Source of the DNA: Heliocidaris erythrogramma
Lineage: Eukaryota > Echinodermata > Echinoidea > Camarodonta > Echinometridae
Reading direction: 5' to 3'
DNA: 64,000 nt
Assembly: GCA_025617745.1 (NCBI GenBank)
Contig: CM046869.1
Coordinates: forward strand, 18,988,994-19,052,993
Part shown: in pieces, positions 1-60,445 of the stretch
Layout: the number at the start of each line of letters is the position of its first letter
Position numbering within the stretch: position 1 is the stretch's first letter
Program-made: the position numbers and the translations under genes
The notes under the pieces: model-generated
Told to the model about the DNA's origin: nothing
Databases searched by the model: none
What the model saw: only the letters and a program-made list of their open reading frames with translations

Positions 1-3000
1 ATGTAGTCGGGCGCACTGTCGACATTGTAGAGGTCATATGTGGTTTGATCTGTGCTGGCATGTCTTTGACACTGACTGAGATGGTGTTGATACTCGAATC
101 CTTCTGAACTGCTGGCGTCTTAGTGTTGGTACTAGACTCAATTTGGTCTGGTGAAATTTGGGCTCCAGTTTCGGAAACTGGAGGAGAGAAAACTGGAGCT
201 GAGAACTGGACTGCTGGAACTTCTTGCTTGATAACTTGTTCGGTCTTTATCTCCACTGGCATATTCACTAGGGAAGCCTGGTCGTGTTGATTCAAAATCT
301 CAGTGTTTACAGAACTGCTGACAGTAGTACTCTCGTATTGTGTTTCACTTGTTGTATTTGTCGGGGCAACTGTTATAGTTGAATCCTCTGTAACGATTGG
401 TCTAGCCATCATGAATGCAATCGAGGTGTCAGACTTGATTTGAGAGGCACTGTCTGCCCTTATAGGAAGTGGTGAGGTATTACTGGCTCCATCTTTTACT
501 TCCATTACATCTGTATTTGCAGCGGCATCTGCGATGTTGGGAGATGGGTCTTCGATCTTAGCTTGTTGTGTGAAGTCTGTACCCTGAGCAATCGCATGGG
601 ATGCTGTGTCAAAAGTATTTGGGAGCACTGTCGACATCGTTGAGGTCATATCTGGTTTGATCTGTGCTGGCATGTCTTTGACACTGACTGAGATGGTGTT
701 AATACTCGAATCCCTTTGAACTGCTGGCTTCTTAGTGTTGGTACCAGACTCAATTTGGTCTGGTGAAATTTGGGCCCCAATTTCGGAAACTGTTGGTGAG
801 AAAACTGGAGCTGAGAACTGGACTGCTGGAACTTCCTGCTTGATGATTTTTTCGGTCTTCACCTCCATAGTTATATTCACCATAGAAGCCTGATCTTGGT
901 GTTCTACAGTGTCAGTGTTCACGAAACTATGCGCCCTCACAGGAAGTGGTGATGTATTACTAGCTCCATCTTTGACAGTGGTACTCTCATGTTGTGTTCC
1001 ACTTGTGGTATCTGTTAGGGGAACTGTTACAGTTGATTCCTCGGTAACAGTTGGTCTAGCCATCATGGACGCAATCGAGGTGTCAGTCCTGATTTGAGAG
1101 GCAGTGTGTGCCCTTGCAGGAAGTGGTGAGGTATTACTAGCTCCCTCCGATGTAGTAGGTTGTACTGTTGACATTTTTGAGGTCATGTTTGGTTTGACCT
1201 GTGCTGGTGTATCTTTGACCTTAACAGAGAAGGTGTTGCTGCTTGAATCTTTCTGAGTTGCTGCCAGCTTAGTGTTCGTGCTGGAGTCCATCTGTTCTGG
1301 GGAAATCTGGGCTTCAGAATTGGTAATTGGAGAAGAGAAAACGGGAGCTGAGAACTGAACTGCTGGAACTTCTTGCTGGATGATTTTTTCCATTCTCACC
1401 TCCATAGGTATATTCACCATTGAAGCCTGATCTTGGTGCTCTACAGTGTCAGTGTTCACGAAACTATGCGCAATAACAGGAAGTGGAGATGTATTACTAG
1501 CTCCGTCTTTAACAGTGGTACTCTCATATTGTGTTTCACTTGTGTTATTGCTTAGGGGGACTGTTACAGTTGAACCCTCGGTAACAGTTGGTCTAGCCAT
1601 CATGGACGCAATCGAGGTGTCAGTCCTGATTTGAGAGGCAGTGTGTGCCCTTACAGGAAGTGGTGAGGTATTACTAGCTCCCTCCGATGTAGTAGGTTGT
1701 ACTGTTGACATTTTTGAGGTCATGTTTGGTTTGATCTGTGCTGGCGTGTCTTTGACAGTGACAGAGAAGGTGTTGCTGCTAGAATCATTCTGAGTTGCTG
1801 GTAGCTTAGTGTTCGTGCTGGAGTCCATCTGTTCTGGGGAAATCTGGGCTTCTGAATCTGAATGTGGAGGAGAGAAAACGGGAGCTGAGAAATGTACTGC
1901 TGGAACTTCTTGCTTGATGATTTTCTCCGTCTTCACCTCCATAGGTATATTCACCATAGAAGCCTGATCTTGATGCTCCACGGTGTCAGTGTTCACAAAG
2001 CTATGAGCCCTCACAGGAAGTGGTGATGTATTACTAGCTCCATCTTTTATATCCGTAACATCAGTGTTTACAGTGGCATCTGCAATTTCGGCTTGGATTT
2101 TAGCTTGCTGAGTAAAGTCTGTACCCTGGGCAATGACGTGGGCTGCTTTTTCCGATGTTGTGGGTTGCACTGTTGACATCATTGAGGTCATATTTGGTTT
2201 GATCTGTGCTGATGTGTCTTTAACGATGGCTGATAATGTGTTGCTGCTTGAATCCTTTTGGTCTTGTGAAAGTTGGGTTCCACTATGCGCCCTTACAGGA
2301 AGTGGTGATGTGTTACTAGCTCCATCTTTTACTTCTGTAACATCTGTATTTTCAATGGCATCTGCCATTTGTCCTTGTATTTTAGCATACTGGCTGAAGT
2401 CTGTACCCTGAGCAATCGCATGGGCTGATGTTTCCGATGTAGTGGGTCGCACTGTTGACATTGTAGAAATCATGTTTGGTTTGATTTGTGCAGGTTTGTC
2501 TTTGACACTGACAGAGAAGGTGTTGCTGCCTGAATCTTTCTGAGTTGCTGGTAGCTTAGTGTTCGTGCTCGAGTTCACCTGCTCTGGGGAAATCTGGGCT
2601 TCAGAATCTGAATGTGGAGGAGAGAAAACGGGAGCTGAGAAATGTACTGCTGGAACTTCTTGCTTGATGATTTTCTCCGTCTTCACCTCCATAGGTATAT
2701 TCACCATAGAAGCCTGATCTTGATGCTCCACGGTGTCAGTGTTCACAAAGCTATGAGCCCTCACAGGAAGTGGTGATGTATTACTAGCTCCGTCTTTAAC
2801 AGTGGTACTCTCATATTGTGTTTCACTTGTGTTATTCCTTAGGGGAACTGTTACAGTTGAACCCTCGGTAACAGTTGGTCTAGCCATCATGGACGCAATC
2901 GAGGTGTCAGTCCTGATTTGAGAGGCAGTGTGTGCCCTTACAGGAAGTGGTGAGGTATTACTAGCTCCCTCCGATGTAATAGGTTGTACTGTTGACATTT

Positions 3001-6000
3001 TTGAGGTCATGTTTGGTTTGATCTGTGCTGGCGTGTCTTTGACAGTGACAGAGAAGGTGTTGCTGCCTGAATCTTTCTGAGTTGCTGGTAGCTTCGTGTT
3101 CGTGCTCGAGTTCACCTGCTCTGGGGAAATCTGGGCTTCAGAATCTGAATGTGGAGGAGAGAAAACGGGAGCTGAGAAATGTACTGCTGGAACTTCTTGC
3201 TTGATGATTTTCTCCGTCTTCACCTCCATAGGTATATTCACCATAGAAGCCTGATCTTGATGCTCCACGGTGTCAGTGTTCACAAAGCTATGAGCCCTCA
3301 CAGGAAGTGGTGATGTATTACTAGCTCCATCTTTTATATCCGTAACATCAGTGTTTACAGTGGCATCTGCAATTTCGGCTTGGATTTTAGCATGCTGGCT
3401 GAAGTCTGTACCCTGAGCAATCGCATGGGCTGCTGTTTCCGATGTAGTGGGGCGCACTGTTGACATTGTAGAAATCATGTTTGGTTTGATCTGTGCAGGT
3501 GCGTCTTTGACACTGACAGAGAAGGTGTTGCTGCTTGAATCTTTCTGAGTCGCTGGTAGCTTAGTGTTCGTGCTTGACTCTGTTTGTTGTGGTGAAATCT
3601 GGGCTTCAGAATCTGAATGCGGAGGAGAGAAAACGGGAGCTGAGAAATGTACTGCTGGAACTTCTTGCTTGATGATTTTCTCCGTCTTCACCTCCATAGG
3701 TATATTCACCATAGAAGCCTGATCTTGATGCTCCACGGTGTCAGTGTTCACAAAGCTATGAGCCCTCACAGGAAGTGGTGATGTATTACTAGCTCCATCT
3801 TTTATATCCGTAACATCAGTGTTTGCAGTGGCATCTGCAATTTCGGCTTGGATTTTAGCTTGCTGAGTAAAGTCTGTACCCTGGGCAATGACGTGGGCTG
3901 CTTTTTCCGATGTTGTGGGTTGCACTGTTGACATCATTGAGGTCATATTTGGTTTGATCTGTGCTGATGTGTCTTTAACGATGGCTGATAATGTGTTGCT
4001 GCTTGAATCCTTTTGGTCTTGTGAAAGTTGGGTTCCACTATGCGCCCTTACAGGAAGTGGTGATGTGTTACTAGCTCCATCTTTTACTTCTGTAACATCT
4101 GTATTTTCAATGGCATCTGCCATTTGTCCTTGTATTTTAGCATACTGGCTGAAGTCTGTACCCTGAGCAATCGCATGGGCTGATGTTTCCGATGTAGTGG
4201 GTCGCACTGTTGACATTGTAGAAATCATGTTTGGTTTGATTTGTGCAGGTTTGTCTTTGACACTGACAGAGAAGGTGTTGCTGCCTGAATCTTTCTGAGT
4301 TGCTGGTAGCTTAGTGTTCGTGCTCGAGTTCACCTGCTCTGGGGAAATCTGGGCTTCAGAATCTGAATGTGGAGGAGAGAAAACGGGAGCTGAGAAATGT
4401 ACTGCTGGAACTTCTTGCTTGATGATTTTCTCCGTCTTCACCTCCATAGGTATATTCACCATAGAAGCCTGATCTTGATGCTCCACGGTGTCAGTGTTCA
4501 CAAAGCTATGAGCCCTCACAGGAAATGGTGATGTATTACTAGCTCCGTCTTTAACAGTGGTACTCTCATATTGTGTTTCACTTGTGTTATTGCTTAGGGG
4601 AACTGTTACAGTTGAACCCTCGGTAACAGTTGGTCTAGCCATCATGGACGCAATCGAGGTGTCAGTCCTGATTTGAGAGGCAGTGTGTGCCCTTACAGGA
4701 AGTGGTGAGGTATTACTAGCTCCCTCCGATGTAGTAGGTTGTACTGTTGACATTTTTGAGGTCATGTTTGGTTTGATCTGTGCTGGCGTGTCTTTGACAG
4801 TGACAGAGAAGGTGTTGCTGCCTGAATCATTCTGAGTTGCTGGTAGCTTAGTGTTCGTGCTGGAGTCCATCTGTTCTGGGGAAATCTGGGCTTCTGAATC
4901 TGAATGTGGAGGAGAGAAAACGGGAGCTGAGAAATGTACTGCTGGAACTTCTTGCTTGATGATTTTCTCCGTCTTCACCTCCATAGGTATATTCACCATA
5001 GAAGCCTGATCTTGATGCTCCACGGTGTCAGTGTTCACAAAGCTATGAGCCCTCACAGGAAGTGGTGATGTATTACTAGCTCCATCTTTTATATCCGTAA
5101 CATCAGTGTTTACAGTGGCATCTGCAATTTCGGCTTGGATTTTAGCATGCTGGCTGAAGTCTGTACCCTGAGCAATCGCATGGGCTGCTGTTTCCGATGT
5201 AGTGGGGCGCACTGTTGACATTGTAGAAATCATGTTTGGTTTGATCTGTGCAGGTGCGTCTTTGACACTGACAGAGAAGGTGTTGCTGCTTGAATCTTTC
5301 TGAGTCGCTGGTAGCTTAGTGTTCGTGCTTGACTCTGTTTGTTGTGGTGAAATCTGGGCTTCAGAATCTGAATGCGGAGGCGAGAAAACGGGAGCTGAGA
5401 ACTGAACTGCTGGAATTTCTTGCTTGATGATTTTTTCCGTCTTCACTTCCATAGGTATATTTACCATCGATGCTTGGTCTTGATACTCCACGGTGTCAGT
5501 GTTCGCAAAACTATGTGCCCTCACTGGAAGCGGTGATGTATTACTAGCCCCATCTTTTACATCCGTAACAGCCGTGTTTGCAGTGGCAACTGCAATTTCA
5601 GCATGGATTTTAGCCTGCTGTGTGAAGTCTGTACCCTGAGCAATCGCATGTGCTGCTGTGTCTGATGTAGTTGGGAGCGCTGCCGACATCGTTGAGGTCA
5701 TATTTGGTTTGATCTGTGATGATGTGTCCTTTACGCTAGTTGGGAGCGTATTGCTGCTGGAATCTTTTTGAGATACTGATGACTGTGTGATAGTGCTAGA
5801 CTCTTTTTTTTCTGGTGAAATTTGGGCTCCAGTTTCGGCAACTGGAGGGGAGAAAACTGGAGCTGAAAACTGCACTGGAGGGACTTCTTGCTTGATAACC
5901 TGTTCGGTCTTTATTTCCACAGGCATGTATACAAGAGAGGCTTTGTCTACATGTTCCACAATAACTGTGTTTGCTGAACTACTGATAACTGAACTTTCAT

Positions 6001-6620
6001 ATTGTGTTTCCTTTGAAGGGTTCTTGATATTTGTAATGGTTGTTCCTTCTGTGACCGAGGGTTTGGCTGTCACTGTTGTAGATGTTGTCTCAATGGACAT
6101 TTGTGATTCGTTATCTGCTAACTTCGGAAGGGGAGAAGTATTACTCGATCCATCTTTCGCCTCGACAATGGATGTAATCGTAGCCCCAAAGGCAACATCT
6201 GGTTTCACCAAGACATTTGCAACAGATGTAGGTGTAGCAATTTGAGAACCAATATTTGCCCTGGCAGGTAAGGGGGATGTATTACTGGCTCCATCACTAG
6301 TATCTGGGGGAGTTGTGTTTGAACTACCGTCAACAGTATCTGCCGGCAAATCCTCTATCTTGACTTGTTGTGCAAAGTCTTGTCCACCTATGAACACACC
6401 AACAGCAGCATTTTCCGTCTCTGGATGTATTGTAGACATGGTGGTACTCATGGCTGGTTGGATTTGGGCTATTGAGTTTGTGACCACAACCAGTTTAGTA
6501 TTGCAGCTCGAATCTTTCTGGTCTGGTGTAACTTGCGACTGGGCATCAGTGAGTGGAGGGGAAAACACAGGAGCAGAAAACTGAACCGATGAAACCTCTT
6601 GCTTTATAATCTTCTCAGTT
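1..6620 (-). repeat. Coding tandem array of Ser/Thr/Asn-rich modules (FSAPVFSPP and DGSSNTSPLP signatures)
   Basis: The motif FSAPVFSPP (or a close variant) is encoded at about 185, 791, 1333, 1871, 2623, 3162, 3626, 4377, 4916, 5382, 5848 and 6560, twelve times. Between copies run modules such as KDGASNTSPLPVRAH, EVKTEKIIKQE, DSSSNTFSVSVKD and AQGTDFTQQAKI. A finer period of about ten residues with the pattern D-x-S-S-x-N-T is visible. Spacings seen (537 and 1,755 bp) are multiples of three, so repeat turnover has kept the frame. Confidence 0.85.
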
Positions 6621-9600
6621 TGAACAGGAGCAGGCATGCTAACATATGATTGTTGATCACGTTGTTCAATCTTATCAGTGTTCACTGATGAAGATACGGC
6701 AGATTTCTCATGTTGAGTAATTCCATCAGTTGAGTTAGGAACAGCCATTACTGAGGAAGCAGTGCTCTTTGGTGTGAACTGGGAGGAAGTATTCTTCCTC
6801 TCTGGTGCAGGAGATGTATTCACTGCTGTGATCTTGATGTTGGGTGAAACTGTGTTGATAGCTGTCATTTTTATTTGGGCGTGCTCTGTATTTATGGATG
6901 CATCAGCGACAGGATTTGTAATATTGACCTGTTCTCCAATTGACGCGGTTGAAGGAATTATCTTTATGTCAGCTGAACTAGACATACTTCTGACTTCCAC
7001 TAGAGATGTATTTGTGGAAAGTTCCTGGACGGTTGCACTTGTCTGTGTCTTTCCTATCGCAACCTCCACACGTGATGTTGACGTCGATGTAGTCCCCATG
7101 TCGGGAAAAGCTGTTGCTGCTTGTGATGACAACTCAGGCATGATTTGCAAGCCGGTATTTGAGGATGTAGGTAAGTTGTCTGTGTTCACAGAAACACTGA
7201 CTACTTCTACTTCGGGCTCAGGAAATGTTGGTGCCATCAGAACAGGCTGAACAACTTGCGGTTGCACAACCTCTTCTTTTGGTTGTGGTATATCTGCTTC
7301 ACTGATTTTATCCGACATCCTTATGATATCTGTGTTTGAAACATTGTCTCTCACATCTTGCGTAACCTGTGTAAGCTGAGAAGTCGTTTCAGCTGGTTTG
7401 ACTGGAACCGTATTTGAACCAGTATTTGCCAAACTCGGCATTGCCTGCGTCGGCTTGGCAGTCAGCTGAGCACGTGAAATCTGTGTCGCATGTGCTGAAT
7501 AAACAGGGTTAACTTGTAAACCAGCATCTCTTGGAATCGTTGGGTCAGTTGACGTATGCTTGTCAAGAACCGATGTACTCATCTGATGAGTAAAGTCGTC
7601 AACAGGACTATGATACTGCAATGAAAATTGCTTCATAGTTGCCGTCCAAGTTGTAGTTTGCTTTTCAGCAGAATGAACAAGCGTTTCTGTGATCTTGTTA
7701 GATTTATCCACACCATCAGTGGATGTACTGGCATTGGTTGTTTCGGTTATCTTTGGAGGCTCACTCCAGGACATGTTGAATTGAGTCTCTTCAGGCGTTA
7801 CAACCTCTGTCATAATTTCCGGTTCAGCCGCTGCTTGTGTTGAAATGTCATGACTTTCAGTTATTGCCAATGCTCCGGATGTTTTCGTGGAAAATATTGA
7901 TTGTGTTGATGAATCTTGTACTTTAGGGCGGACGATGGACAACTGAGTACTGCTATTAGCGACTTTTACTGGGTTGTACTGGGTGCTGTCATTGTCTCCC
8001 ATCGGAGTCATCTGTTGTTGTTGACTGCGTAGATTAGGTCTTATTTCACTAGACACATCCTCTGTTTGGGGAACAAGTAAGTCACACTGAGAAGATTGTT
8101 GATTAACCTTTGGCTTCTTTTTCAGTTGTTCCAAATAATAATTCACAACCTGTTTCTTGGATGATAGGTCGACAGTTATACTTGCGTCCTTCTTCTGCAC
8201 CGCATCCGTTGATGTCTGTCTGTCCATTAGTTTTGTGGATATTTGAAAGTCTTTTGTCGCAGTGGCTGGTCTTGGGGCAGATGTAGATGTTGATGCCTGC
8301 TCGAAACTAACCTGTGCGCCTGAGGACTGTGTTTCAGCGGTGATCTGGAAGGTAGAATCTCTCATATCAATTCCTGTGGTAGAGGTGCTATCATCCTTAG
8401 TTTTCACATCAGGTTTTTTTATTTCTGCCTCAACTGCCACGTCTTCAGTTAAAACTGTGTCTGTATTTGATAATGAATTCATTGTGTCCTTTTTCATGGT
8501 AACTTGCACGGGCGTAGATGACATCTTTGTCTTTTCAATAGATGTGCTATGCGTTTCATAAACCGGTGATACTTGTACTCCAGCAAATCCACGGCTTTCC
8601 TCTATGGTCGCAGTTCCTTTCTCGAGGACCGAAACTGAAGTCTGTTGACTTGATGATATACTTTTTGTTAGTGGGGTATCAAATTGGGTAGTAAAACTTC
8701 GAAGGGATATCTTCCATGCTGGGACCTCTTTTTCTTCCAAAGCAGGTGCAACCCCCAGTGATTGATCTTTTGTCTGTGGTGCATCTGGTGTATCTGTTGA
8801 GGCATCTCTTGTGTCTGGTTTGACTTCTTGGAAATTCATCTGAACATTTGGCGCTTCGACAATAATTGCTGGCTCAGGAATGATTTCCAGCATGGGTATT
8901 GTCTGAGTATTTGATTCAGAGCTCCGAAGTTCTGTTTGCGCCGTACTGTCTTTGAGATGCTTGATGTCTGTGACCTGCACAATTGAGTCACCGGTTGTTT
9001 GCCCGAACTGAAATTGCTTTTCTCGTACGTCGGGGCGTATTTGATGTGATGTGTCTCTTACGCTAACCCCGTCCTCTACAGCAAGGCTTGTTTTTACGCT
9101 TATTTCTGGTTTTACTTGGATAGCTGTATTAGTCTTTTCCAGTTCCATCTCAACAGCAACATCTTGCACACTAGGTGTCTCTATTGCTTTCTGTGAAGTT
9201 GAGTCTCTCGTAGTAATCAAAGTGGATTGGGTTGATACTGTTTTCATGATTTTGTCAATTTGGGAAGAGCTGTCACTTGTTTTCGTGGTCACCTCAGTTG
9301 AACTCTCTGTAACTTTTGGCTGGACCATAGTCTCCGTGTTGTTCCGTCTTACAACTGTAGGTGAGGATGTGCTATCAGTCATTTCAGGCTTTACTTGAAC
9401 GTTCGAATTTGTTCGGTCTACTTCAGGTATTGCATGTTCATAAGAAACTACAGTAGGGGCAATGGGTTCATCAAGGAACAGAGCTGGGATTTCCTCTTCT
9501 GTTTGTGATTCTTGTTGAGAAACCTTGGGTGTCTTCACGCGCCGAGTAAGCTTTCGCTCTGTTTCCTCTTCAATTTTCATCATGAGTTCTGGCCACGACT

Positions 9601-11941
9601 TGTCTGACTGTGTGAATCTTTCGGTAATGATCGGAGTATGATACTGGGTGAAGCTATCTGTTAACCGTTTCTTCTCTTCTCTTGGTGCCTTCAGTGTCAA
9701 AACTCCAAGTGACTGAACAGTTTGTGCGTAATCAGGTTCGTCCTCCTGTGCTGCGATGTGAGCTTCCAGTTCCCGAATGGTTTTCCTATACTCACTCTCA
9801 AGTTCTAGCTTTAAGCCTCTTAGGAGATCTCGCCAAGATCTTTCAGGCTGAGTAAAGCTGTGGGATACGTCAACTTCCTCGGATTGGGTAGATGTTTCTG
9901 TTTTCTGACCAATGGATGGTGCCCTTAATTTGATAACTCCAATTGAAGTGGGTTCAGCGGGCTTCAGCTTCTGCTTTGTAGATGTTTTCTTGAAGGATAT
10001 GATTGCGTTTTCTTCGATTCTACTCAGGATTCGATCCCATGGTGTTCTAGGTTGAGTACCTTGTTCAACCATTCTTGGCCGTGGGACAGAACTGACTTGT
10101 GGTTGCTCTTCCGCTTTCAGTTTGAATATCCCTATCATTGGTGGCTTGTCATCTTTGGGTTTTTTCTTTTGAGAAATCTTCTTAAACTCCTCGACTGCTG
10201 TCTCCTGTATGGTACTGACGACTGTTTTCCAGTCATTTTCAGGCCTCGTGCCCTTTTCGGATGTCGACTTGGTATTCTGCTTCCTCACAATGTTTTCAAC
10301 TTCTTCTTGCACTATTCTGACCAATAACGGCCATGTTAGTTCAGGTTCAGTACTAGCGTCACCTGTTTCCTTTCTTTCTGGCTCCTTTTTGGTCTTAGTT
10401 TTCTTCCGGATGACTTCCTCTACTTCAGTCTGCACCATCCTCACCATTTGCCCCCATGATAACTCTGGCTCTGTTGTTTGATCGTTTTTAAGTCTAGGTC
10501 TATCCTCAGCACCAATCAGCTTAAACACAGCAAGGGGTATCTTTTCAGGCTTTTGACCAGTCGTTGCGGTTACTTCAGTTTCCTTTACTTGTTTTAAGAC
10601 TTCTTGTTGAACGAGATGAATGATTTCAGGCCAATCCATTTCAGGTTGTATGCCTTTGTCATTTCTGTCAACTGTAGGCTCCGTCTTTTGTACGTGTTGT
10701 TTTTTAACCATCTCTTCTGTCTCTTCTTTGATGATTTTGACCATATGCGGCCATGACAGTTCTGGCTGCGTCGCACTATCAAACATAGGTGGTTTAGGTC
10801 TTGATTTAAGCTGAATGGATCCAAGATTGCTAGGCGTCTTCTGCTTTAGTGATTGCTTCCTTTCGACTATCTCCTCTGTTTCACTCTGTATCATCCTGAG
10901 TACTTGGTTCCATGAGAGGTCTGGAGTGGTTCCCGTAGTTTTGGTGGCAGGTGTTGGTTGGTGAGGAGCTTGCAATTTTACAATACTGACCGTACGAGGT
11001 TCAGATCGCTCTGGCCTTTGTTGTGTTTTTCGGATGACCGATGATTCTATTTCTTCTTCCAGTTGAGTAACAAGATGTTGCCAAGGCCGGTCTGGACTTG
11101 TACCCTTAGAAACAGCAGATACTCTCGGTGTCTTTTCTTTTGTTGATTTCAACTTGAAGACTCCAAGAAGCGGAGCCTTCTTGCTTGGGGCTCTGGATGT
11201 CATTGTCCGTTCTTCCTCAACAAGGTCTCTTACGGTGTGGATCAACTGGGGCCAGGTGATAGCAGGTTCAGTATAATTATCAATCATCCTTGGCCTTTTC
11301 GTGGATTGTGTTCTTTGTGTCTTCTGGATGTCAGTTTCATCCCATGATTCATGTCTCATCAGTGAGGACCGGTTAGAGGGTTCGACGTAGCGATTCAGCT
11401 CATTCCAAAGTGGTTGTTTGAGAGAATCGGGACGAACCAACTTTATAACTCCAATCGTCGGGAAGTTTCCTGTCTGTCTATCAGGAGATGGACTTCGTGA
11501 ACGTCGTTTTTGTGAAGTTGATGATGAAGTGAATGTTTCTCTCTCATCGAAAGGTCTTCGAACGCTGGGCATTCCGAGTCGACGTGAAGTTTCGAGATGT
11601 TCGACATCTTCACCGGCCCAACTTACACGTCTTTCCAACGTCTGCGGACGTCTTTGGTCGGGGACAAGTTTAATGACTCCGATAGTTGGTATACCTCCAG
11701 ATTTCGGTTGGTTAGGACGTCCTGATGTGGTACTGTAGAACTGCTCTTCCTCGTCCAGAAACTCTTGTGCATATTGATAGATAGAGCCAGGGTGACGATT
11801 AGAGGGATGGCGGCCGACTTGCGGCGTGGAATCCCCGACGCTGATTCCACTGCTCGAGTCATCACCTCCAGGGGAAGTTCTGGTACCATCTCGTGATATC
11901 AGGCGAATTACACCGATGGTGGGGATGTCTGTCTCGTCATT
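1..11941 (-). CDS. Giant repeat-bearing exon 3 of a transmembrane protein gene (partial, continues past base 1)
   Basis: Not a protein I recognise. The exon starts after the acceptor CTTTTCAG (11942-11949) with AAT GAC GAG and stays in one open frame to the window edge, about 3,980 codons; I checked many stretches and saw no stop. It joins exon 2 in phase 0. The first part (11941 to about 9550) repeats a hydrophobic 'PTIGVIKL'-like motif and a Trp motif of the type 'QPELSW' followed by an acidic amphipathic stretch. The middle (about 9.5-6.6 kb) is rich in 'DSSTQ/DSTSQ'-like signatures. The last part is a tandem array with 'DGASNTSPLPVRAH' and 'PVQFSAPVFSPP'. No catalytic domain or membrane segment is visible, so as part of this gene it should be cytoplasmic. 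The many short plus-strand ORFs over it are shadows. The function is unknown; a scaffold or structural role is only a guess from the low-complexity repeats. Confidence 0.85.
1861..5370 (-). repeat. Near-identical 1,755-bp in-frame tandem duplication inside exon 3
   Basis: Bases 1861-3615 match 3616-5370 at an offset of 1,755 bp with only scattered differences, and identity fades just outside. For example, 2133-2411 equals 3888-4166. The unit is 585 codons and itself contains about four of the smaller modules, so this is a recent higher-order duplication. Collapse or expansion in assembly is possible here. Confidence 0.85.
9550..11941 (-). repeat. Tandem protein module array: IGVIKL motif plus Trp helix motif
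   Basis: Translating exon 3 shows about ten related hydrophobic motifs (PTIGVIRL, PTIGVIKL twice, LLGVFKL, VSIVKL, LGSIQL, LAVFKL, MIGIFKL, SIGVIKL, LGVLTL). They are interleaved with about eleven Trp motifs: ITWPQL, RPWQHL, LSWNQV, LSWPHM, MDWPEI, LSWGQM, LTWPLL, NDWKTV, TPWDRI, RSWRDL and KSWPEL. Each Trp motif is preceded by something like 'T-Q-P-E' and followed by an amphipathic acidic stretch such as VRMVQTEVEEV. Spacing is roughly 40-80 residues. The exon 1/exon 2 junction carries one more IGIIKL copy. Confidence 0.8.
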
Positions 11942-12897: not shown

Positions 12898-13724
12898 CTG
12901 CTCCAAGACAGAGAAATAACAAAGATATTCTGTGAATCAAGCAGGTTTCTCTTTTGTTAGATCTGATATTCTGTGAAGCAACCAGGTTTTCTCTTTTGTT
13001 AGATCTAGAATTTGATTTGCACATTTCAATGATTTTTGGAGTTTCATTTTCTTCTGAAATAACAATATATTAGAAATGACAAATTTTCTATACCTCTATA
13101 TTCTGTATTTTAAAGTAAAGAAACAGTACCCACATAATCAAATAAATATTCTGTATTAAAAAAGGTAATGAGTAACCTATTATATAGTTCATATAGTAAT
13201 ACCATTGTCGATCTTACCAAATCTTCAGAATATAAGCACTTTATCAGGGGGCTCGTCAAACAAAGTTTTGAACACAGTAAATATGAAGGAAAATCTTTCT
13301 TTTTACAAAGAAATTGAAATAATCTGTCTAAGAGGGAGTGTGGACTAAAGACCATGATTCCCCTGTCTCCGGAATTTGATAAAAATCATGAGGAAAAGAA
13401 TGGTTATTTCAGTATAATATTATCCCTGATAGCAGAAAGAGGAAAAAATGACGTGATATTTACATTGTGGTTTTCGTCTTTTTTACGTCCTGTAATTACG
13501 TCAATGAGACGACAACTTGCACCAACGCAAGACGTCAAGAGGACGTCTTATTTTGACGTCATCTGTACACTGTAAAAACTGAAGTGCTGTATATAGCACT
13601 TTTTGAGGGCATGCATAGGGACTGCACTCAGAGTGCTATTGAATGCACACAGCGTGCTATTTCAGCACTTTCAGCGGCTCCTTAAACTGCAAAACATTCA
13701 TTAAAAAATGATTTTGGCGATTTC

Positions 13725-13958: not shown

Positions 13959-14487
13959 GTCACATTTTTTTTGCTGGTAAATTAAGGTGCAGTTACTATA
14001 CATGCCCCTAAAAGTAGCACTTTAGTTTTTACAGTGTACAAGACGTAGAGATGACGTCTTGCGTTGGTTCAAGTTGTCGTCTAATTGACGTAATTACAGG
14101 ACGTAAAAAAGACGTAAACGACGACGTAAATATCACATCATTTTTTCCTCTTTCTGCTATCAGGGATGTTATAATTGATATGGATACGCATAATTATGAC
14201 TCAACATGATCAATTTTTATTTCCTTTAAAAAAAATTATTTTCGCATAATTTGTGCGTGTTGACAAAATTATTAAACTGTGTCCGCTTTGATTTAAAGGT
14301 AATGAATTGCCTTGTCAAAAAGTTATAAAATCAACTGATTTTTAGATATTTCCAAACACATAGTAGTTGTAAAAATCGCCTCTTCGCGCCATTTGCAATA
14401 ATTTAGATTCTATGCGTTATACGTCTTAATATCGTAGATCAATAATATCTCTGTCGAATCAATTTGTTGTGGTAGGTTTGTACTCAC

Positions 14488-42969: not shown

Positions 42970-45900
42970 TCATTTGAAATTCCAAACTTGAACAAAACGT
43001 TTGGGAAAGTGTACTCTTCTGCCGGAACGAGTTTGTCTGACTTCGGGCTTGGCAGGAGGAGTGATAGAGGGAGGTTGAGGCTGAGAGGTTGGTGTAGTAG
43101 GCGCTTGTGAAGGTTTAGGGTCCTGTGAGAGTGCTGGGCCAGGGTTGGTAGTAGATTTGACGGGCGAGTCCAAGTAAGCAGGTTTCAAACGGTCGAGACT
43201 GACGCTGTCTTGTTTTCCTTTGAGTTGGATGATGAAAAACTTGTCAGTTCGTCTGATGACTTCGAATGGGCCGTCGTATGGTGGTTGGAGAGGTTTCTTG
43301 ACTGCATCATGTCGCACAAATACATGGGTGCATGTTGTGAGATCAGGATGGACCTGTGGTTTGCGTTGTTGAGCACGGGTGGGTTGAGGTCTGAGGTTCT
43401 GCATTTGTCTCCGTAGTCGGTGGATGTAGTTGCTAGGGTCCAAATCACAATCATTCTGACTAGGCGCTACAAACTGACCTGGCAATCTTATTGTTGTTCC
43501 ATATACCAGTTCAGCTGCGCAACAACCTAAATCAGATTTGACTGCAGTTCGGATTCCAAGCATGACGAGAGGGAGAGTTTCAGTCCATCTCGCACTAGTG
43601 GTAGCTTTGAGAGATGCTTTGAGTTGTCGATGAAAACGCTCTACAAGTCCATTTGATGCTGGGTGGTAAGATGTAGTTCGAATCCGAGAGCTGCCAAGAA
43701 GATGAGTTAGGGCTTGAAAGAGAGAAGATTCAAATTGTCGTCCTCTGTCGGTTGTGATGGTTGAGGGAGCTCCGAAGCGAGATACCCATTGTGAAATGAA
43801 AGCTTGGGCAACAGTCTCGGCTGATATGTCGGGGATTGGTATTGCCTCAGGCCATCGAGTGAAACGGTCAACACAAGTGAGGAGATATGCATTGCCATTT
43901 GAAGGAGGGAGGGGTCCCACGAGATCGATGTGGATGTGGTTGAATCTAGCGTCTGGTGTTGCAAAAGTACCTATCGGTGCCTTGGTATGACGATGTACTT
44001 TGCAACGTTGACAATGTATGCAAGTTTTAGTCCAACTTCTGACATCTTTGTTGATTCCAGGCCATACAAATCGCTCAGTGATGAGTGTTTGAGTAGCATT
44101 GATGCCGGGGTGAGATAGGTTGTGAAGAGCATCAAACACAACTCGCCGAAATTTGGCTGGGATGTAAGGGCGAGGATTTGTAGTTGAAGTGTCACATAGA
44201 ATGGTAGAGTCAGAAGTAGGGAGTGGTAGAGGTTGGAGTTTGAGCGAGGTTGCAGTGAGTTGCTTGAGTTCCTCGTCATCCTCCTGAGCAGTGGCGATGG
44301 CATTGAAATCAATGGTGGAAGATGTTTTGAGCGAGTTGATTTCCATGCGGGAAAGTGTGTCTGCCACTACATTGTGTTTGCCACTAACATGCCTAATATC
44401 AGTCGTGAATTGCGATATGTAGTCTAGATGCCGGACTTCTCGTGGTGAATACCTGTCGGGTCTAGAGTTGTAGGCATGGATTAATGGTTTGTGATCTGTG
44501 TAGACACAGAATTGCCGTCCTTCTAGTGCATGCTTGAAGTGACGAATGGTGAGGTAGATAGCGAGAAGTTCACGTCCGAAAGTGCTATACCTGGTCTCTG
44601 CTGGCTGCAGGCGTTTGGAGAAGAAGGCGATGGGTTGCCAGTCATCGTCAACTAGTTGCTGCAACACCCCTCCGACAGCAACATCTGATGCATCAACCAT
44701 AATGCAGAGTGGGGCATTAGGCTTAGGGTGTGACAGAAGTGTAGCGTTAGCTAATGCTGTCTTGACCGAGTTGAATGCATGGAGGGCCGTTTCGTCGAGA
44801 TGAATTGCCTTGTTTTTCTGCTTGCATGCCAGGAGATCAGTGAGTGGTTGTGTGGTAGCTGCACAATCGGGAATGAAGCGTCGATAGAAGTTGATGAGTC
44901 CGAGAAACTCGCGAAGTTTGCGTAGAGAATCAGGGACAGGGAAATCGTTGATGACTTTGACTTTCTCGGGAAGAGGGCGGATGCCGTTCTCATCAACGAT
45001 ATGGCCGAGAAAGGTGAGGGAGGATGCGCCAAATTCACATTTGGCTGGGTTGATGACAACTCCATATTTCGCAAGTCTAGTGAAGAGAAGTTGCAGGTGT
45101 TGTACATGCTGCTCTGGTGTCTCACTTGCGATGAGGAGGTCGTCGATGTAGGCGTACACAAAGGGAAGACCACGGGTTACCTCATCAATGAATCGTTGAA
45201 AAGTTTGTGCGGCATTGCGTAGCCCAAAAGGCATGCGCACAAACTCAAATAACCCAAAGGGTGTGGTGATGGCTGTTTTGTGTACATCTGAGGGATCGAC
45301 TGGTATCTGATGGTAAGCTCGAATGAGATCGAGTTTTGTGAAAACTCGTTTGCCTGCTAGGGCAGAGGTGAAATCTTGAAGATGGGGGATTGGATATTTA
45401 TCGGGAACTGTATTCCTGTTTAGTGCCCGATAGTCTCCGCACGGTCTCCAGTCTCCAGGGGTTTTCTTGGGCACCATATGAAGTGGGGATGCCCAGTTGC
45501 TGCTGGATGGTCGGATGATACCCAGTTCCAGCATGTGGTCAAATTCAGCTTTTGCAATGGTATACCTGTCGGTTGCTAGGCGACGAGGACGGGCTGAAAC
45601 AGGAGGGCCTTTCGTCTCAATGTGATGGGTGACGGAATGTTTGATTGTTGCCTCCTTGTACACAGGGCGTGTGATGTCAGGAAATTGATTGAGAAGAGAT
45701 TTGTAAGCAGCTTGACTGTCTGGCTTTACAAACATAGGACTGATAGAAGGAGAAGAAGAAAGGATGCCTTTTACTGATAGATTAGTAGTAGAATCGATGA
45801 GTCGAAGATTGCGAACATCAACCAGCAAACCAAAGTGGTGTAGGAAGTCTGCCCCTAGGATAGGCGTGGAAATATCAGCAATGATGAAAATCCATCTGCA

Positions 45901-46200
45901 AGCTCGACGTAAGCCGACGTCGAGAGTCAGGCTTCGCTCTCCATAAGTAGTAATACTTGAGCGATTTACTGCTTGTAGATGAAATTTCGAAGAAGGGTGA
46001 TGTTTCTCCGATTTTGAAGGAGGAAGAACGCTTACTTCAGCTCCAGTGTCTACGAGAAATCGAATTCCAGTTTTCCTATCGGTAACGTAGAAGAGGCGAC
46101 TATTTTGTGTCGTGCCAGTAGGACTTGTCGCTGCTAGTCGCTGGCTTGGTCGTTTCCCTGGTTGGTAGAAGCAGGTTTGAAGGAGCAGGGAGGAGAGCAT
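42970..46200 (-). CDS. pol: Pol polyprotein of the Ty3-type element
   Basis: The ORF is 1,076 codons from its first ATG, though translation more likely enters by -1 frameshifting from gag at 46152-46158. Counting from that ATG: protease DTGAE at 51-55; reverse transcriptase with LDLIRAYHQ (catalytic Asp 291) and YIDD (351-354); RNase H with Asp503, Glu544, Asp569 and Asp614; integrase zinc finger His693, His697, Cys727, Cys730; DDE triad Asp759, Asp818, Glu854, with the classical 35-residue gap between the last two; and a GPY/F-like stretch with PYDGPF near 974-979. All key residues are present and there is no internal stop. The C-terminal 60 residues are Pro/Ser/Thr-rich. Products act in the cytoplasmic particle and then the nucleus. 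Confidence 0.95.
46097..46158 (-). promoter_or_regulatory. Probable -1 ribosomal frameshift signal at the gag/pol overlap
   Basis: The heptamer GGGAAAC (46152-46158) is placed as G-GGA-AAC in the gag frame, the canonical slippery form; slipping back one base enters the pol frame. Six bases further on GCCAG (46141-46145) can pair with CTGGC (46114-46118), and the enclosed CGACTA (46135-46140) with TAGTCG (46097-46102), an H-type pseudoknot topology. One loop is long and another almost zero, so the fold needs testing. Confidence 0.7.
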
Positions 46201-47024
46201 TTCTTGGCCTCAATACCGAACCTCCAGTGATAATAGCAGTCCCCTCCAGCATGGCGTTGTGAGCTGGGGCTTCTTGCTTTTCGGTCTTGTTTTTGACGAG
46301 AACCTCGATCACGGCTACGACTTCGGCCTCGATCAGGCTGAGAAGACAGGGCTTGAACTTGCAATGTAAGCTGTGAAATTTGAGCCTTGAGTTCTTGCAT
46401 CTCAGCAGAAGAAGTAGAAGAAGGAGTAGGTTGGGAGGAAGAAGACAGGTTCGAGATAGCGTGATAGTTTGATGGAGTAGTAGTCTCAATAATTTTATCC
46501 GCCAAATCCGCGAGCTTTTCTATCTCCATAGAGTCCCTACTTGAAGCTAATACAAGTTGCACATTTGTTGGGAGCCTCTGTAGAAAAAATTGCTTCAGAA
46601 TGTTCTCCTCTAGCTTGCTGGTTCCTAAAAGTTGCTTCATTTTTCGGAGTAACTGAGAGGGTTTGCGATCTCCCAGTTCCTCTGAAATGAGTAACTGATG
46701 TAGGCGTTTTTGCTCGGATGCCGAAGTCCTCTGGATAAGCTCAGCCCTTAGTTTGTCGTATGGCTTTTCCTTCGGGGGTGAGATGAGAATATCACGAATT
46801 TCTTGAGCATATTCAGGCTGAAGGGATGCGACAACGTAAGCGAATTTCGTTGCCTGAGCAGTGACGCCTCGGGTTGTGAACTGCGCCTCTACCTGGGCGA
46901 ACCAAATGGTAGGATCATTTGGCCAGAAGGGAGGAAGTTTGAGTTGAACATTTGAGACACATGGAGAGCTAGAAGTTTCAGAAGACGGAGAAGTTGAAGA
47001 ATCAGTCATATTGTCAGTAGGCAT
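46134..47024 (-). CDS. gag: Gag protein of the Ty3-type element
   Basis: The protein is 296 residues from ATG 47022-47024; a longer reading beginning at TTG 47084 is not needed. The N-terminal region contains [20 protein letters not shown], the characteristic start of the capsid-like domain in this group of Ty3 elements. A basic Arg/Ser/Lys tract follows, then C-YY-H-(9)-C-SPP-C, a CX2HX9CX3C nucleic-acid-binding finger rather than the usual CCHC knuckle. The stop TAG at 46134-46136 overlaps the pol frame. Gag forms the particle and packages the RNA. Confidence 0.9.
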
Positions 47025-47128
47025 TGTGACAGTTGAAATGGCAAGTAGATATATGAAGTAAAGGGTGACAATAAATGAAAACAATTTGACGAAGGATGAA
47101 TGCTACTCAGCACGTTGGTCGGGTTTAG

Positions 47129-55379: not shown

Positions 55380-55594
55380 AAGCAATCGAGATAATAAAAG
55401 GAAGGCATCGCTCTTCGACAATCAGACTTTGTTTGGCGACCAATCAGATCTGAAGTAAGAGAGTTTCTGTGTGTATCACTTTGCAGATTCCTGCCACGAA
55501 TTGTTTATTGGAACTTTCTGCTATAAGACTGAATAGAGATAGAGATTGACTTGCATTTTCTTAATTGCTATTTGAAGACAAATTTGACACAAAG
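55380..55594 (+). promoter_or_regulatory. Candidate promoter/5' leader of the 55.6-kb gene
   Basis: A CCAAT box (55440-55444, GACCAATCAG) lies about 150 bp before the start codon. No clear TATA box or splice donor. Placement is inferred from position only. Confidence 0.3.
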
Positions 55595-56122
55595 ATGGCC
55601 TCTGTAAATGATAGCGGTACCACAACAACCGTCAACTTCAGCACTTCGACAGAAGCTCAAACGGGGACGAATATCTCCGAAATCAGCACGAACACCGTTT
55701 CGCTCAACCTTCGGGATTCGATGTCACAGGTGGACGGCCCGAAGATGATGAATACAATGGCCCAAGCGAAGCCGCCGACGGACACGGCGATGGCTGGCGT
55801 GGGTCCGATCACCGAGGAAGCTTCGACGTTCATCTCCTCCAACGCGAAGGATTTCTCCACGCAGTCGAACGTGGCATCGTCCGGTAGCGACTTCGGGACC
55901 AGTACAATGTCGACGTCCGTGAAAACTGCGGGGATCATGACGTCACCGACTCAGAAGACTAACGCGACATCGCAATTCCATTCGACCACGAGTTCGTCGT
56001 CTACGATGTCGGCACCACAGATGCAGGATGGTGGTACGTCGCCGAATATGACGGGGAGTTCGACCAGACAGACCCAGTATGAGTCCACTACCGTCACCAA
56101 GTCGATGAATACGAGAGAATGA
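55595..56122 (+). CDS. Small Ser/Thr-rich protein homologous to one repeat unit of the giant gene
   Basis: The protein is 175 codons from ATG 55595 (AAAGATGG, strong Kozak) to TGA 56120-56122, without introns. Its GC-rich codons stand out from the AT-rich surroundings. It has no signal peptide, membrane segment or cysteine and is dominated by Ser, Thr, Met, Asn and Gln. It aligns colinearly with the giant gene's array: STNTVSLNLRDSMSQ against SSNTFSVSVKDTPAQ; then a Pro-x-Met...Thr-Met...Pro block; AKDFSTQ against GTDFTQQ; STSVK against AVTDVK; and TQYESTTV, identical in both. So it looks like a single-unit relative of that array, on the opposite strand about 40 kb away. Function unknown; it could also be a single-exon retrocopy or an exon of a larger gene. 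Confidence 0.7.
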   Translation: MASVNDSGTTTTVNFSTSTEAQTGTNISEISTNTVSLNLRDSMSQVDGPKMMNTMAQAKPPTDTAMAGVGPITEEASTFISSNAKDFSTQSNVASSGSDFGTSTMSTSVKTAGIMTSPTQKTNATSQFHSTTSSSSTMSAPQMQDGGTSPNMTGSSTRQTQYESTTVTKSMNTRE

Positions 56123-57855
56123 TGGGATGAAGTTCGACTTTAATTATTTCAATTATTTTATTTTGATTAATAATAATATTACTTATACTTCTGTGAGGGA
56201 AGGGACTGGATAGGAAGCACAACTATGCATTCTAAATATGTAGGTAAACAAATGTTATTGTAACAAAGAATCTGTCTGTATAGATATGCCTTTTTCTTCC
56301 AGTGCACGAATCTTATATTGTTTACGTGCGTATATATTTAACGCTTGAGCAAATCTTGTCTTTCTTAATAACACATCAAAATATAACATGTATATATTAG
56401 TGTGGTCTTACCATTATGTAGACTATCTTTAAAATTGCTTTCTTTGTCATGGGCGTCGATCAGTATTCTAAGGGAGAGGGGGGAAATGCTTTAATTGTAT
56501 AACTGAACTTTCCATATGCAGTTAATCAAGCAAATAATTATTGGGAACCCCCTCCCGAATACGACGTGGGGTTTTATTATTAGGTAAAAGACTTGAAAGA
56601 CTCTTCATCCTGATGCATTTATATGTTTGTAGCAACATCGAAGTCCTACACCAACGACGTGAAAGAAGGAGGCTGATCATAGTGTTATTTCCATAATTTA
56701 CAGTGACAACATGTGCGAAAACAGTATAATGTAAAGTAATGTGATAAATGCGGAACTTCTTTGTTTTTTGTTGTTGTTTTCTTAAATCTATATATTGAAC
56801 TTAATTGAACAACGATACAACATATTCTGTTATCTTAGCAGTCTTTGAGTAATTGTGATGCTTACAGAATCAAGATAATTTGAGACGCATTCTTTATTTT
56901 TGAAACTAGTCATGTTCTCGAGAATTTATTCACTGAATATGGATTGTGTATACCCTTCCATAAGCCTAATTGTCATAAACTTTCCCTAGGCAGCGAAACG
57001 TTGATATTTCTTCAAACATTACTCTAGTAGTGATAAGAGGAAAAACAATTGGACCTTGGGCGGTGATAAAATAGCAGAAGCCTGTGAAAAGGCATGTTGG
57101 TTTAGTAGCTATAGGGTTGCTATGTATATTCCAGCCTTTTTTTTTTCTTTTTTTTTTGTTCTGGACATGGGAACTATTTTCATCGTGTAGCTTGCACATG
57201 TGTATGACCAGGCAAGCTTCCTTTTTTTTTTTTTTTTTTAATTTATAGATACAATGTACATCTATTATTCAGTAGAATATAGGGCAAACGCTTGAATTTC
57301 CTCTCTTTTTTTTTTCTTATGCGAGGTACAGTCAGCCAGTCTATATTGTACAAGTATTGATGTATAATTGGACTCTTTAAGTGTTTTCCGAGCATTACAT
57401 TAATTCCAATTAGACAATACGATGCTTGTCTTTTTGATTTTCAATAGTGAATTTCGTAAATCTTCTTTTCTTTTGGCCCAGGTATTACATTGACTCCAAG
57501 ACGTTACGATGCTTGTCTTTTTGATTTTCAATAAGAATAGTAAATTTCGTACATCTTCTATTCTTGTATTCCTATAAAGTATATCATTGTTTTCTTCATT
57601 GTCTCTGAATATCTCATTCCCCCAAAAGAACGCAGTATACATATCAATATATCATTCTTCAATAAAACTGTAATAAATTTCATTAAGCGATGTACTACGT
57701 AGTGATTTGATTTATTTGACTGTGTGATAGAATGATAGGTAAATTGTAAGAAATTGTTAATTTGGAATGACTAATTTCATACAACTTCCCAATCAAAATA
57801 ATATATTTAACGAGTACTTATGAACCATTAGCGTGAAAAGCGTATAGATGTTTGA
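56123..57855. other. Possible 3' untranslated region, then non-coding
   Basis: No ORF with support. The first clear AATAAA after the small gene is at 57661-57666, which would imply a 3' UTR of about 1.5 kb; this is uncertain. A variant of the CATGGGCGTCGATC motif lies at 56447. T homopolymers occur near 57140 and 57220. Confidence 0.35.
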
Positions 57856-58684: not shown

Positions 58685-60445
58685 ACTGTCAAAGATATAT
58701 TACGTAAGCATGGAAATATTGCTACCCCAGAAAAGTTCACTCATGAAGGAAAAGAATTTACTTCACCAAGAGATATTGCAAATGCATTTAACAGCTATTT
58801 TACTAATGTTGGTACAAATCAAGCAAAGCTAATAGATACAAATGGTACCAATTTTAGGAATTATTTACACAATTCATCCCAATTTTCTATCTTCTTCAGG
58901 CCAGCTAACTATCTAGAAATCTTCAATGTAGTATGTTTGCTCAAGAATAGTCACTCATGTGGCCATGATGAATTAAGCACATCCCTGTTAAAGCAGATTA
59001 TTGGCTCAATTATAACCCCAGTTGTACACATTTGTAATCTCTCATTGTCGACAGGAGTGTTTCCTTCTAGTTTCAAACTAGCCAAAGTGATCCCGATTCA
59101 TAAGAAAGATGATACAAAGTTCATCTCTAATTATAGACCTATTTCAGTATTACCTAGCTTGTCTAAAACTTTAGAGAGAATTGTTTATAATAGGCTTTAT
59201 GAATTTTTGGATAATCACAAGTACCTAAATTCTGAACAATATGGATTTAGGCGATGTCATTCTACCGACCTTGCATTGTTAAAATTTTACGACCGTGTGT
59301 CAACTGCCCTAGCAGCTCGGGAGCATGTGGTTGGCGTATTTATGGATCTCAGTAAAGCCTTTGATACACTTGATCACTCTATTCTTCTTTCTAAATTGGA
59401 GCACTATGGAATAAGAGGTATTGCGTTACAGTGGTTTTCAAATTATTTATCTATGAGAAGCCAATATACCCACTGCAATTGTACAAATTCAGATGTTACT
59501 TTTCTAAAATGTGGCGTCCCCCAAGGATCTATTCTAGGTCCGCTATTATTTCTCATCTACATTAATGATATTTGTGATGTTTCCGCAGATTTGCATTATA
59601 CTTTATTTGCGGATGATACAAGTGTCTTCTTGTCACATTGTAATATCCAAACGCTTGAACAAAAACTGAACTCAGAACTGCCAAAGTTGACATTATGGTT
59701 CAGGAGTAACTTGCTCTCTCTAAATATAGGAAAAACCAATTTTATTCATTTTCAGGGAAGGAAATCTACAGGCAACAAACAATTAAATATTGAGGTGGAT
59801 GGTATAGAGTTAGAGCGAAAGACATGTACAAAGTTCCTTGGTGTGTATATCAATCAGAAGCTTGATTGGAGTGACCATGTGGCTCACATTGTTACCCCGA
59901 TTTCTCGAAACATAGGTGTATTGTACAGGGTTAAATGTTTTGTTGATAGAATTTTATTGATATTATACAATACTCTTATACTACCATACATTTCATATTG
60001 CAATGTACTTTGGGCTACATCCAAGGTTTTAACTAACAATATCCTTCTCCTGCAAAAGAAAGCCATTCGCATATGTACTGGTTCTGGTCCCCGAGACCAC
60101 ACAAAGCCTTTATTTGTTAAGTTGAAGTGCCTGAAGGTCGATGATATAAACTACCTGCAAACCGCCTTATTCATGTTTCGTTTTAATGCCAAACTTTTGC
60201 CCGACTCATTTTCTTCTATGTTTCAGCATAACAGCACCATTCACTCCTATCCCACCAGGCAGGCATCAAACATACATTTAGTCAATCCCCGCACAGCATT
60301 AGCACATAAATCAATCAGACATAGCGGTCCAGATATTTGGAATTCTCTTCCGCAAAATATCCGTAATTTGCAAACCCCACATTCGTTTAAAATGGCCGTA
60401 AAGCAAATTCTCCTTTTAAAGATGCATGAATTCCAAGGTACATAA
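58685..60445 (+). CDS. 5'-truncated non-LTR retrotransposon ORF2 with reverse transcriptase
   Basis: The frame is open from just after TAA 58682-58684, about 586 codons; the first Met is not the biological start. It opens with a linker typical of this group (AFNSYFTNVG) and then the reverse transcriptase: YRPISVLP, EQYGFRRCHSTDLAL, FMDLSKAFDT (catalytic Asp at about 59345), CGVPQGSILGPLLFLIYIND, and FADD (59612-59617). The thumb region includes LGVYINQKLDW. The C-terminus has YPTRQA...GPDIWNSLP. This pattern is that of the Jockey/CR1 assemblage; I cannot name the clade. The endonuclease domain is missing, as expected from 5' truncation. No internal stop, so the copy is fairly young. Confidence 0.85.
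   Translation, partial: TVKDILRKHGNIATPEKFTHEGKEFTSPRDIANAFNSYFTNVGTNQAKLIDTNGTNFRNYLHNSSQFSIFFRPANYLEIFNVVCLLKNSHSCGHDELSTSLLKQIIGSIITPVVHICNLSLSTGVFPSSFKLAKVIPIHKKDDTKFISNYRPISVLPSLSKTLERIVYNRLYEFLDNHKYLNSEQYGFRRCHSTDLALLKFYDRVSTALAAREHVVGVFMDLSKAFDTLDHSILLSKLEHYGIRGIALQWFSNYLSMRSQYTHCNCTNSDVTFLKCGVPQGSILGPLLFLIYINDICDVSADLHYTLFADDTSVFLSHCNIQTLEQKLNSELPKLTLWFRSNLLSLNIGKTNFIHFQGRKSTGNKQLNIEVDGIELERKTCTKFLGVYINQKLDWSDHVAHIVTPISRNIGVLYRVKCFVDRILLILYNTLILPYISYCNVLWATSKVLTNNILLLQKKAIRICTGSGPRDHTKPLFVKLKCLKVDDINYLQTALFMFRFNAKLLPDSFSSMFQHNSTIHSYPTRQASNIHLVNPRTALAHKSIRHSGPDIWNSLPQNIRNLQTPHSFKMAVKQILLLKMHEFQGT

What the first reader, a model, noticed from the sequence alone, without database searches (positions are those of the whole stretch)
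55595..56122. Stand-alone single-unit homologue of the giant gene's repeat, 40 kb away on the opposite strand
The 175-residue ORF aligns colinearly with one module of the array, with shared NT-x-S, D-x-x-x-Q and DF-x-x-Q positions and the identical TQYESTTV. A local pair of a giant multi-copy and a minimal single-copy protein could be a functional pair, such as a partner, competitor or capping unit, or the evolutionary seed of the array.
Basis: partly seen in the sequence, partly recalled or inferred. Interest (0 to 1): 0.8.

Follow-up and report, generated by a model that had tools for sequence, protein, structure and literature searches.

The report
Small disordered cousin of giant protein
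In what looks like an animal genome, a 175-residue disordered protein matches one unit of a much longer repeat protein encoded about 44 kb away; it is very likely a real, separately conserved gene, and the idea that the two work as a pair is plausible but unproven.

Summary
The 175-aa ORF (55595-56122, +) aligns, about 30% identical over about 145 residues, with one unit of the giant minus-strand ORF (2-11638, open at the window edge); BLASTP E 1e-7. Its score, 152, is reached by none of the shuffled or Markov controls, and each half of the ORF matches on its own (0 of 500), though the register of the N-terminal half is ambiguous. A second sequence, P0001, is also 175 aa, 83% identical without indels, and scores 168. 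The shared TQYESTTV uses other codons than the giant: an old split with peptide-level retention, not a recent stray copy. The ORF lacks the giant's IKQEVP/FSAPVF segment. Its model is disordered. I read it as a low-valency paralogue that presents one set of the short motifs which the giant presents many times, perhaps competing for the same partner. Partner, expression, synteny, species and direction of descent are untested: the genome search did not complete in 8 of 8 attempts. The giant's D-xxx-Q spacing resembles LC8 dynein-light-chain sites, but TQYES is not a good LC8 anchor.

The parts
55595..56122 (+). 175-aa single-unit ORF (stop included)
   Evidence: relative P0001, 175 aa, 83% identity, no indels; AlphaFold2 mean pLDDT 45.9, no secondary structure; no Pfam family at E<=1
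55394..55401 (+). TATA-like ATAAAAGG about 200 bases upstream of the ATG; candidate core promoter (inference only)
   Evidence: string match; not tested for function
55715..55732 (+). codons for residues 41-46, D-S-M-S-Q-V (D-xxx-Q-[TVI] motif); D-S-T-S-Q-I in P0001
   Evidence: coordinates computed from the ORF start
55850..55864 (+). codons for residues 86-90, D-F-S-T-Q, identical in P0001, opposite DFTQQ of the giant
56072..56095 (+). codons for residues 160-167, TQYESTTV (TQYESTTI in P0001); holds the only tyrosine of the ORF; Ser is TCC here, AGT in 6 of 6 giant copies of the peptide (4 exact, 2 variant)
2..11638 (-). giant ORF, 3879 aa in the window, open at the window edge; repeat landmarks from about residue 1686 on
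299..760 (-). giant residues 3627-3780, the unit that best matches the whole ORF

Best explanation
The ORF is an old, stand-alone paralogue of one unit of the giant repeat protein. It makes a small, probably intracellular, intrinsically disordered protein that carries one set of the short linear motifs which the giant carries many times: STNT, D-xxx-Q-[VI], DF-xx-Q, TSP...SQ, and TQYESTTV with its lone tyrosine. Shown: a full-length relative of the stand-alone form, similarity to one giant unit beyond composition, the TQYESTTV peptide in different codons, low predicted order, absence of the FSAPVF/IKQE segment. Inferred: the shared motifs are docking or modification sites for the same partner(s), so that the giant is a multivalent scaffold and the small protein a low-valency ligand that can occupy the partner without cross-linking it (microProtein-like logic). 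The partner is unknown; LC8-type dynein light chain is one candidate for the D-xxx-[Q/N]-[TVI] motif, not for TQYESTTV.
For: P0001, 83% identical over all 175 residues with no indel. Scores 152 and 168 to the same stretch of the giant against control maxima of 100-123. Both halves match separately, 0 of 500 shuffles each, in both sequences. Profile test 0 of 2000 and 0 of 2000. Ser TCC versus AGT in 6 of 6 giant copies of the peptide. D at -4 from Q in the less repetitive giant residues 1-2000: 21 against shuffle mean 7.2, 0 of 1000. The single ORF tyrosine lies in TQYES; 5 of 16 tyrosines in giant residues 1001-3879 do too. AlphaFold2 mean pLDDT 45.9.
Against: No binding, expression or synteny data. 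The register of the N-terminal half is ambiguous. D-xxx-Q is not clearly enriched in the ORF or P0001 on their own (2 sites each, reached by 45 and 57 of 1000 shuffles). ORF/P0001 differences are fewer at unit-identical positions (4 of 50) than at other aligned positions (16 of 94), but Fisher p is 0.21, so selection on exactly the shared residues is not shown. The profile score of P0001 only just exceeds the shuffle maximum (8.4 against 7.2). The copies of TQYES in the giant are not independent of each other, being array duplicates. No relative of a giant piece was found, so the giant's own conservation is unproven. P0001 could be a paralogue from the same species. A two-sequence alignment gives AlphaFold2 little to work with.
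Confidence: 0.4

Rival explanations
1. Independent paralogue: the ORF and the giant descend from one ancestral motif-rich segment but now act separately, in different tissues or with different partners. The 44-kb proximity is residual from a local duplication and inversion, with transposons inserted since.
For: Old divergence (blastn best E 0.21); opposite codon preference (GC3 0.69 against 0.39; CpG observed/expected 1.42 against 0.51); reverse-transcriptase ORFs lie between the two genes and beyond the small one; the ORF lacks the giant's IKQEVP/FSAPVF segment (ORF read).
Against: The TQYESTTV peptide and the overall segment order are kept despite codon divergence, which suggests some shared function.
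Confidence: 0.35
2. Evolutionary seed: the ORF preserves the pre-amplification single-unit gene from which the giant array was built.
For: As a whole it matches the one unit with all five landmarks in order better than the amplified copies: 152 against 123 or less for 200-aa windows that do not overlap that unit. Part of the array was recently amplified (98.4% identical block 1755 bases apart).
Against: The giant has a long degenerate stretch with the same motif vocabulary upstream of the tandem part, so the array can have grown from its own sequence; a unit copied out of the giant long ago would look the same; residues 1-80 alone match another unit best (3439-3501).
Confidence: 0.12
3. Convergence: both proteins are Ser/Thr-rich disordered sequences that acquired the same short motifs independently.
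For: Different codons for the identical 8-mer; low complexity of both; identity only about 30%; without the 8-mer the ORF's score falls to 111, reached by 1 of 500 shuffles; ambiguous N-terminal register.
Against: Composition and Markov controls never reach the full score; both halves pass apart; P0001 with the shared peptide masked still scores 129 against a maximum of 105; 0 of 300 Markov giants share any exact 8-mer with the ORF.
Confidence: 0.1
4. Not a gene: a chance open frame in a GC-rich patch.
For: The patch is GC- and CpG-rich, which favours open frames, and other frames are open in part of it.
Against: P0001 has the same start, stop and length at 83% identity; 1 of 2000 base shuffles of 55495-56222 gives an open frame this long; GC and CpG fall off near the ORF ends.
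Confidence: 0.03

Closest known systems
[quoted passage not shown]
   Same: A small protein that is sequence-related to a much larger one in the same genome and could act by occupying the same partner.
   Different: The three papers in that listing are on plants, and the domains involved there are folded as far as I recall; here both proteins look disordered and no complex or partner is known.
LC8-binding multivalent disordered proteins such as ASCIZ/ATMIN (passages of PMC6607443; passages of PMC5963919)
   Same: Disordered sequence with repeated short motifs; Asp at -4 from Gln, and Asp at -4 with Val/Ile/Thr at +1, occur in the giant more often than in shuffles (21 against 7.2 and 9 against 1.8 in residues 1-2000, 0 of 1000 each).
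   Different: Only 2 TQT in the 3879 residues and none in the ORF; many sites have Asn in place of Gln; TQYES has Tyr at +1, where PMC6607443 describes buried, branched residues; [TSAVIG]Q[TVI] alone is not clearly enriched in residues 1-2000 (23 against 17.1, 88 of 1000).
SQ/TQ cluster domains (definition recalled, no call)
   Same: The ORF has 5 SQ/TQ sites.
   Different: No more than its composition gives: 305 of 1000 shuffles reach 5.

Membership tests
Repeat family of the giant protein | Similarity to a unit beyond composition, in order along the unit | tested here: met
   register of the N-terminal half ambiguous
Repeat family of the giant protein | Presence of all unit segments, including KxExxIKQEVPxxxFSAPVFS | tested here: not met
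   10 and 12 copies of the two landmarks in the giant; the ORF as printed has neither, and 0 [VILMF]KxE sites
MicroProtein-like competitor | Small protein, sequence-related to a larger one in the same genome | tested here: met
MicroProtein-like competitor | Binds the same partner and blocks complex formation | not testable with these tools
   no binding data
LC8 client | TQT-type anchor (Gln flanked by buried Thr/Val/Ile-like residues) | tested here: inconclusive
   ORF has 1 [DE]xx[TSAVIG]Q[TVI] site, reached by 113 of 1000 shuffles; giant 7 in residues 1-2000 (5 of 1000) and 22 in 2001-3879 (0 of 1000, but inflated by tandem copies)
LC8 client | Direct LC8 binding | not testable with these tools
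   LC8Pred and binding assays not available here
SQ/TQ cluster protein | More SQ/TQ than composition predicts | tested here: not met
   ORF 305 of 1000, P0001 198 of 1000 shuffles reach the count

The most novel reading that the evidence does not exclude
A locally encoded pair in which a giant disordered scaffold, built by repeated amplification of a motif module, is regulated by a free single-unit protein that presents the same motifs at low valency and so titrates the scaffold's partner: a motif-level microProtein working by valency rather than by a folded domain.
Probability: 0.15. Interest if true: 0.75.

Novelty: new variant of a known kind. Interest (0 to 1): 0.45.

Why it matters
If the two proteins share a partner, the pair would be a natural test of how valency in disordered scaffolds is regulated: one gene supplies many copies of a motif set, a neighbour supplies one. 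Even without that, the ORF is an outside reference for ordering the growth of a giant repeat exon, and TQYESTTV is a candidate functional peptide, picked out by its presence in both proteins across a change between the two serine codon families.

Tried and rejected
Protein searches (3 of 3 used): the ORF gave 1 relative, P0001, among 70 candidates; giant residues 1500-2010 gave none at E<=0.01 (the 7989 candidates sharing most words were scored); a profile of ORF, P0001 and the giant unit gave only P0001 at E<=1 among 6263 candidates. The rest of the giant was not searched there. Viral contigs: 32 pattern matches, no relative. Genome contigs: 131 pattern matches, 1 called a relative (L001, an uncultured Tenericutes bin, 34% identity at query residues 49-107, E 2e-6 relative to the candidate stretches only); none of its 9 listed ORFs of 100 aa or more lies over the matched stretch on the matched strand, and by eye (no call) its ORFs are ordinary bacterial proteins, so I set it aside as chance. 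Rfam found nothing in the window at gathering scores. PDB gave one marginal match for the ORF (E 0.49) and none at E<=1 for giant residues 1-700. Pfam had no match at E<=1 for the ORF or for the 508-aa ORF (searched without its first residue), and only sub-cut-off ones for the giant and the 12533-13024 ORF. The SQ/TQ cluster idea was rejected as composition only. The fold comparison was not run, since no residue of the model reaches pLDDT 70. Two literature searches aimed at giant or tandem-repeat proteins listed 1 and 3 papers, none on point by title and abstract start; I make no claim that nothing is in print.

Full report
What is there. The window (64 kb, 39% GC, no N) looks like animal genomic DNA (inference): retroelement ORFs with reverse transcriptase, RNase H and integrase domains, many simple repeats, no tRNA or Rfam match. 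The species is not known. The ORF named in the finding is at 55595-56122 on the plus strand, 175 aa with an ATG at 55595. The giant ORF is 2-11638 on the minus strand, 3879 aa within the window and still open at its edge, so the window does not hold the whole giant, and its start and splicing are not established.

Is the resemblance real? The best local alignment runs over about 145 residues at about 30% identity, with a single-comparison BLASTP E of 1e-7, and points to giant residues 3627-3780. The score, 152, is not reached by 500 shuffles (max 110), 500 block-shuffled ORFs (max 107), 500 Markov sequences of the ORF (max 117), 500 of the giant's residues 1000-3879 (max 123) or 300 Markov giants (max 112); the reversed ORF and the reversed giant each give 79. 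Part of the margin comes from TQYESTTV: with it masked the ORF scores 111, which 1 of 500 shuffles reaches. The relative P0001, found without using the giant, scores 168, and 129 with the shared peptide masked (0 of 500, max 105). Tested apart, residues 1-80 and 81-175 of both sequences each beat 500 of 500 shuffles. A profile of the 6 units ending in TQ[YH]ES scores the ORF 18.4 bits (0 of 2000 shuffles) and P0001 8.4 (0 of 2000, but the shuffle maximum is 7.2). Giant residues 1-900 score only 62 and the neighbouring 508-aa ORF 37. A search of the whole window with the ORF found, besides itself, only stretches of the giant.

What is less firm. The N-terminal half has two possible registers. 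The ORF's alignment pairs STNT with SINT and RDSMSQ with KDMPAQ; the full-length P0001 alignment pairs STNT with GTNT, RDSTSQ with RDSSIN and AQAKP with AQIKP; and residues 1-80 alone match giant 3439-3501 best. Residues 81-175 fall on giant 3684-3779 in both sequences; without the shared peptide (81-159) they are weaker: 81 (0 of 500, placed at giant 1595-1650) and 71 (2 of 500).

Is it a gene? P0001 comes from a 1231-base contig in the protein database (source label 'lgn', 4 member sequences, no name). It is 175 aa, 83% identical (29 differences) and aligns without a gap from start to stop. I cannot tell whether it is another species or a paralogue, and without its DNA I could not measure dN/dS. 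GC, GC3 and CpG are high inside the ORF (0.55, 0.69, observed/expected 1.42) and CpG is low in both 500-base flanks (0.54 and 0.76) and in the giant (GC3 0.39, CpG 0.51); the contrast roughly follows the ORF boundaries. A TATA-like ATAAAAGG lies at 55394, and no AATAAA or ATTAAA was seen between the stop and 57600. These are string matches only.

Age and relation to the array. There is no DNA-level similarity between ORF and giant (best blastn E 0.21). The shared peptide uses TCC for Ser in the ORF and AGT in 6 of 6 giant copies (4 exact TQYESTTV, one TQHESTTV, one TQYESSV; these copies are array duplicates, not independent); 3 of 8 codons agree with the nearest unit. Moving between these serine codon families takes more than one base change, so the peptide has been held, or regained, at the protein level. 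Part of the giant's array was amplified recently: a block of 1926 bases recurs 1755 bases on at 98.4% identity (window 3551-5476 and 1796-3721). The ORF as a whole matches best the unit at 3627-3780, which lies outside that block (152 against 123 or less for windows not overlapping it) and is the only one in the window with all five landmarks in order. The ORF lacks the giant's IKQEVP...FSAPVF segment (landmarks 10 and 12 times in the giant). The split is therefore old; its direction is open.

How it may work. AlphaFold2 on the two-sequence alignment gives mean pLDDT 45.9, no residue at 70 or above, no secondary structure, and there is no Pfam family. With no hydrophobic start (MASVNDSG, read directly) it is probably not secreted (inference). 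Such proteins usually work through short motifs (established knowledge, no call). In the less repetitive part of the giant (residues 1-2000), Asp at -4 from Gln occurs 21 times against a shuffle mean of 7.2 (0 of 1000) and D-xxx-NT 7 times against 0.4 (0 of 1000). The ORF has two D-xxx-Q sites, both kept in P0001, but two is not clearly more than chance (45 and 57 of 1000). This spacing is that of LC8 sites, where position -4 is often aspartate (passages of PMC6607443), and ASCIZ is a disordered multi-site LC8 client (passages of PMC5963919). Against LC8: only 2 TQT in the giant and none in the ORF, and Tyr after Gln in the shared peptide. The only tyrosine of the ORF is in TQYES, and 5 of the 16 tyrosines of giant residues 1001-3879 are in the same peptide, which makes it a candidate docking or phosphorylation site (inference).

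Verdict. The functional-pair reading is reasonable but rests on inference; an independently acting paralogue is nearly as likely. The nearest named concept is the microProtein (search listing and start of the abstract of PMC7584889); what would be new is competition by valency of disordered motifs. Synteny, expression and genome-wide copy number could not be examined because the genome search did not complete (8 of 8 attempts).

Noticed in passing
window 3551-5476 and 1796-3721 (-): Higher-order duplication inside the giant array: the same block 1755 bases on, 98.4% identical, a sign of recent amplification.
   Followed up: partly
giant ORF, window 2-11638 (-): 28 [VILMF]KxE (SUMO-consensus-like, label recalled) sites against shuffle mean 3.75, max 13 of 500 shuffles; many lie in the KTEKIIKQEVP segment, which is itself tandemly repeated. 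None in the small ORF.
   Followed up: partly
giant residues about 100-700, window about 9539-11341 (-): N-terminal part with recurring TQPELSWPxxV-like and GVIKLxxP-like patterns, seen by eye; no PDB relative at E<=1.
   Followed up: partly
window 12533-13024 (-): Possible upstream exon with an Arg/Ser-rich stretch and GIIKLMRPDS, resembling GVIKLVRPDS near the start of the giant ORF; acceptor- and donor-like sites at 12901 and 12616.
   Followed up: partly
window 14459-15985 (-): 508-aa ORF with a signal-peptide-like and membrane-span-like start (by eye) and a DSATQCELLAP stretch resembling SSQCDLLVP in the giant; no Pfam family at E<=1.
   Followed up: partly
window 42970-47084 (-) and 58937-60445 (+): Retroelement ORFs on either side of the small gene: RT, RNase H and integrase plus a DUF7041 ORF in the first, RT alone in the second.
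   Followed up: partly
window 55595-56122 (+): CpG observed/expected 1.42 largely confined to the coding sequence, with preference for TCG, ACG, GCG and CCG codons, unlike the giant; unexplained.
   Followed up: partly
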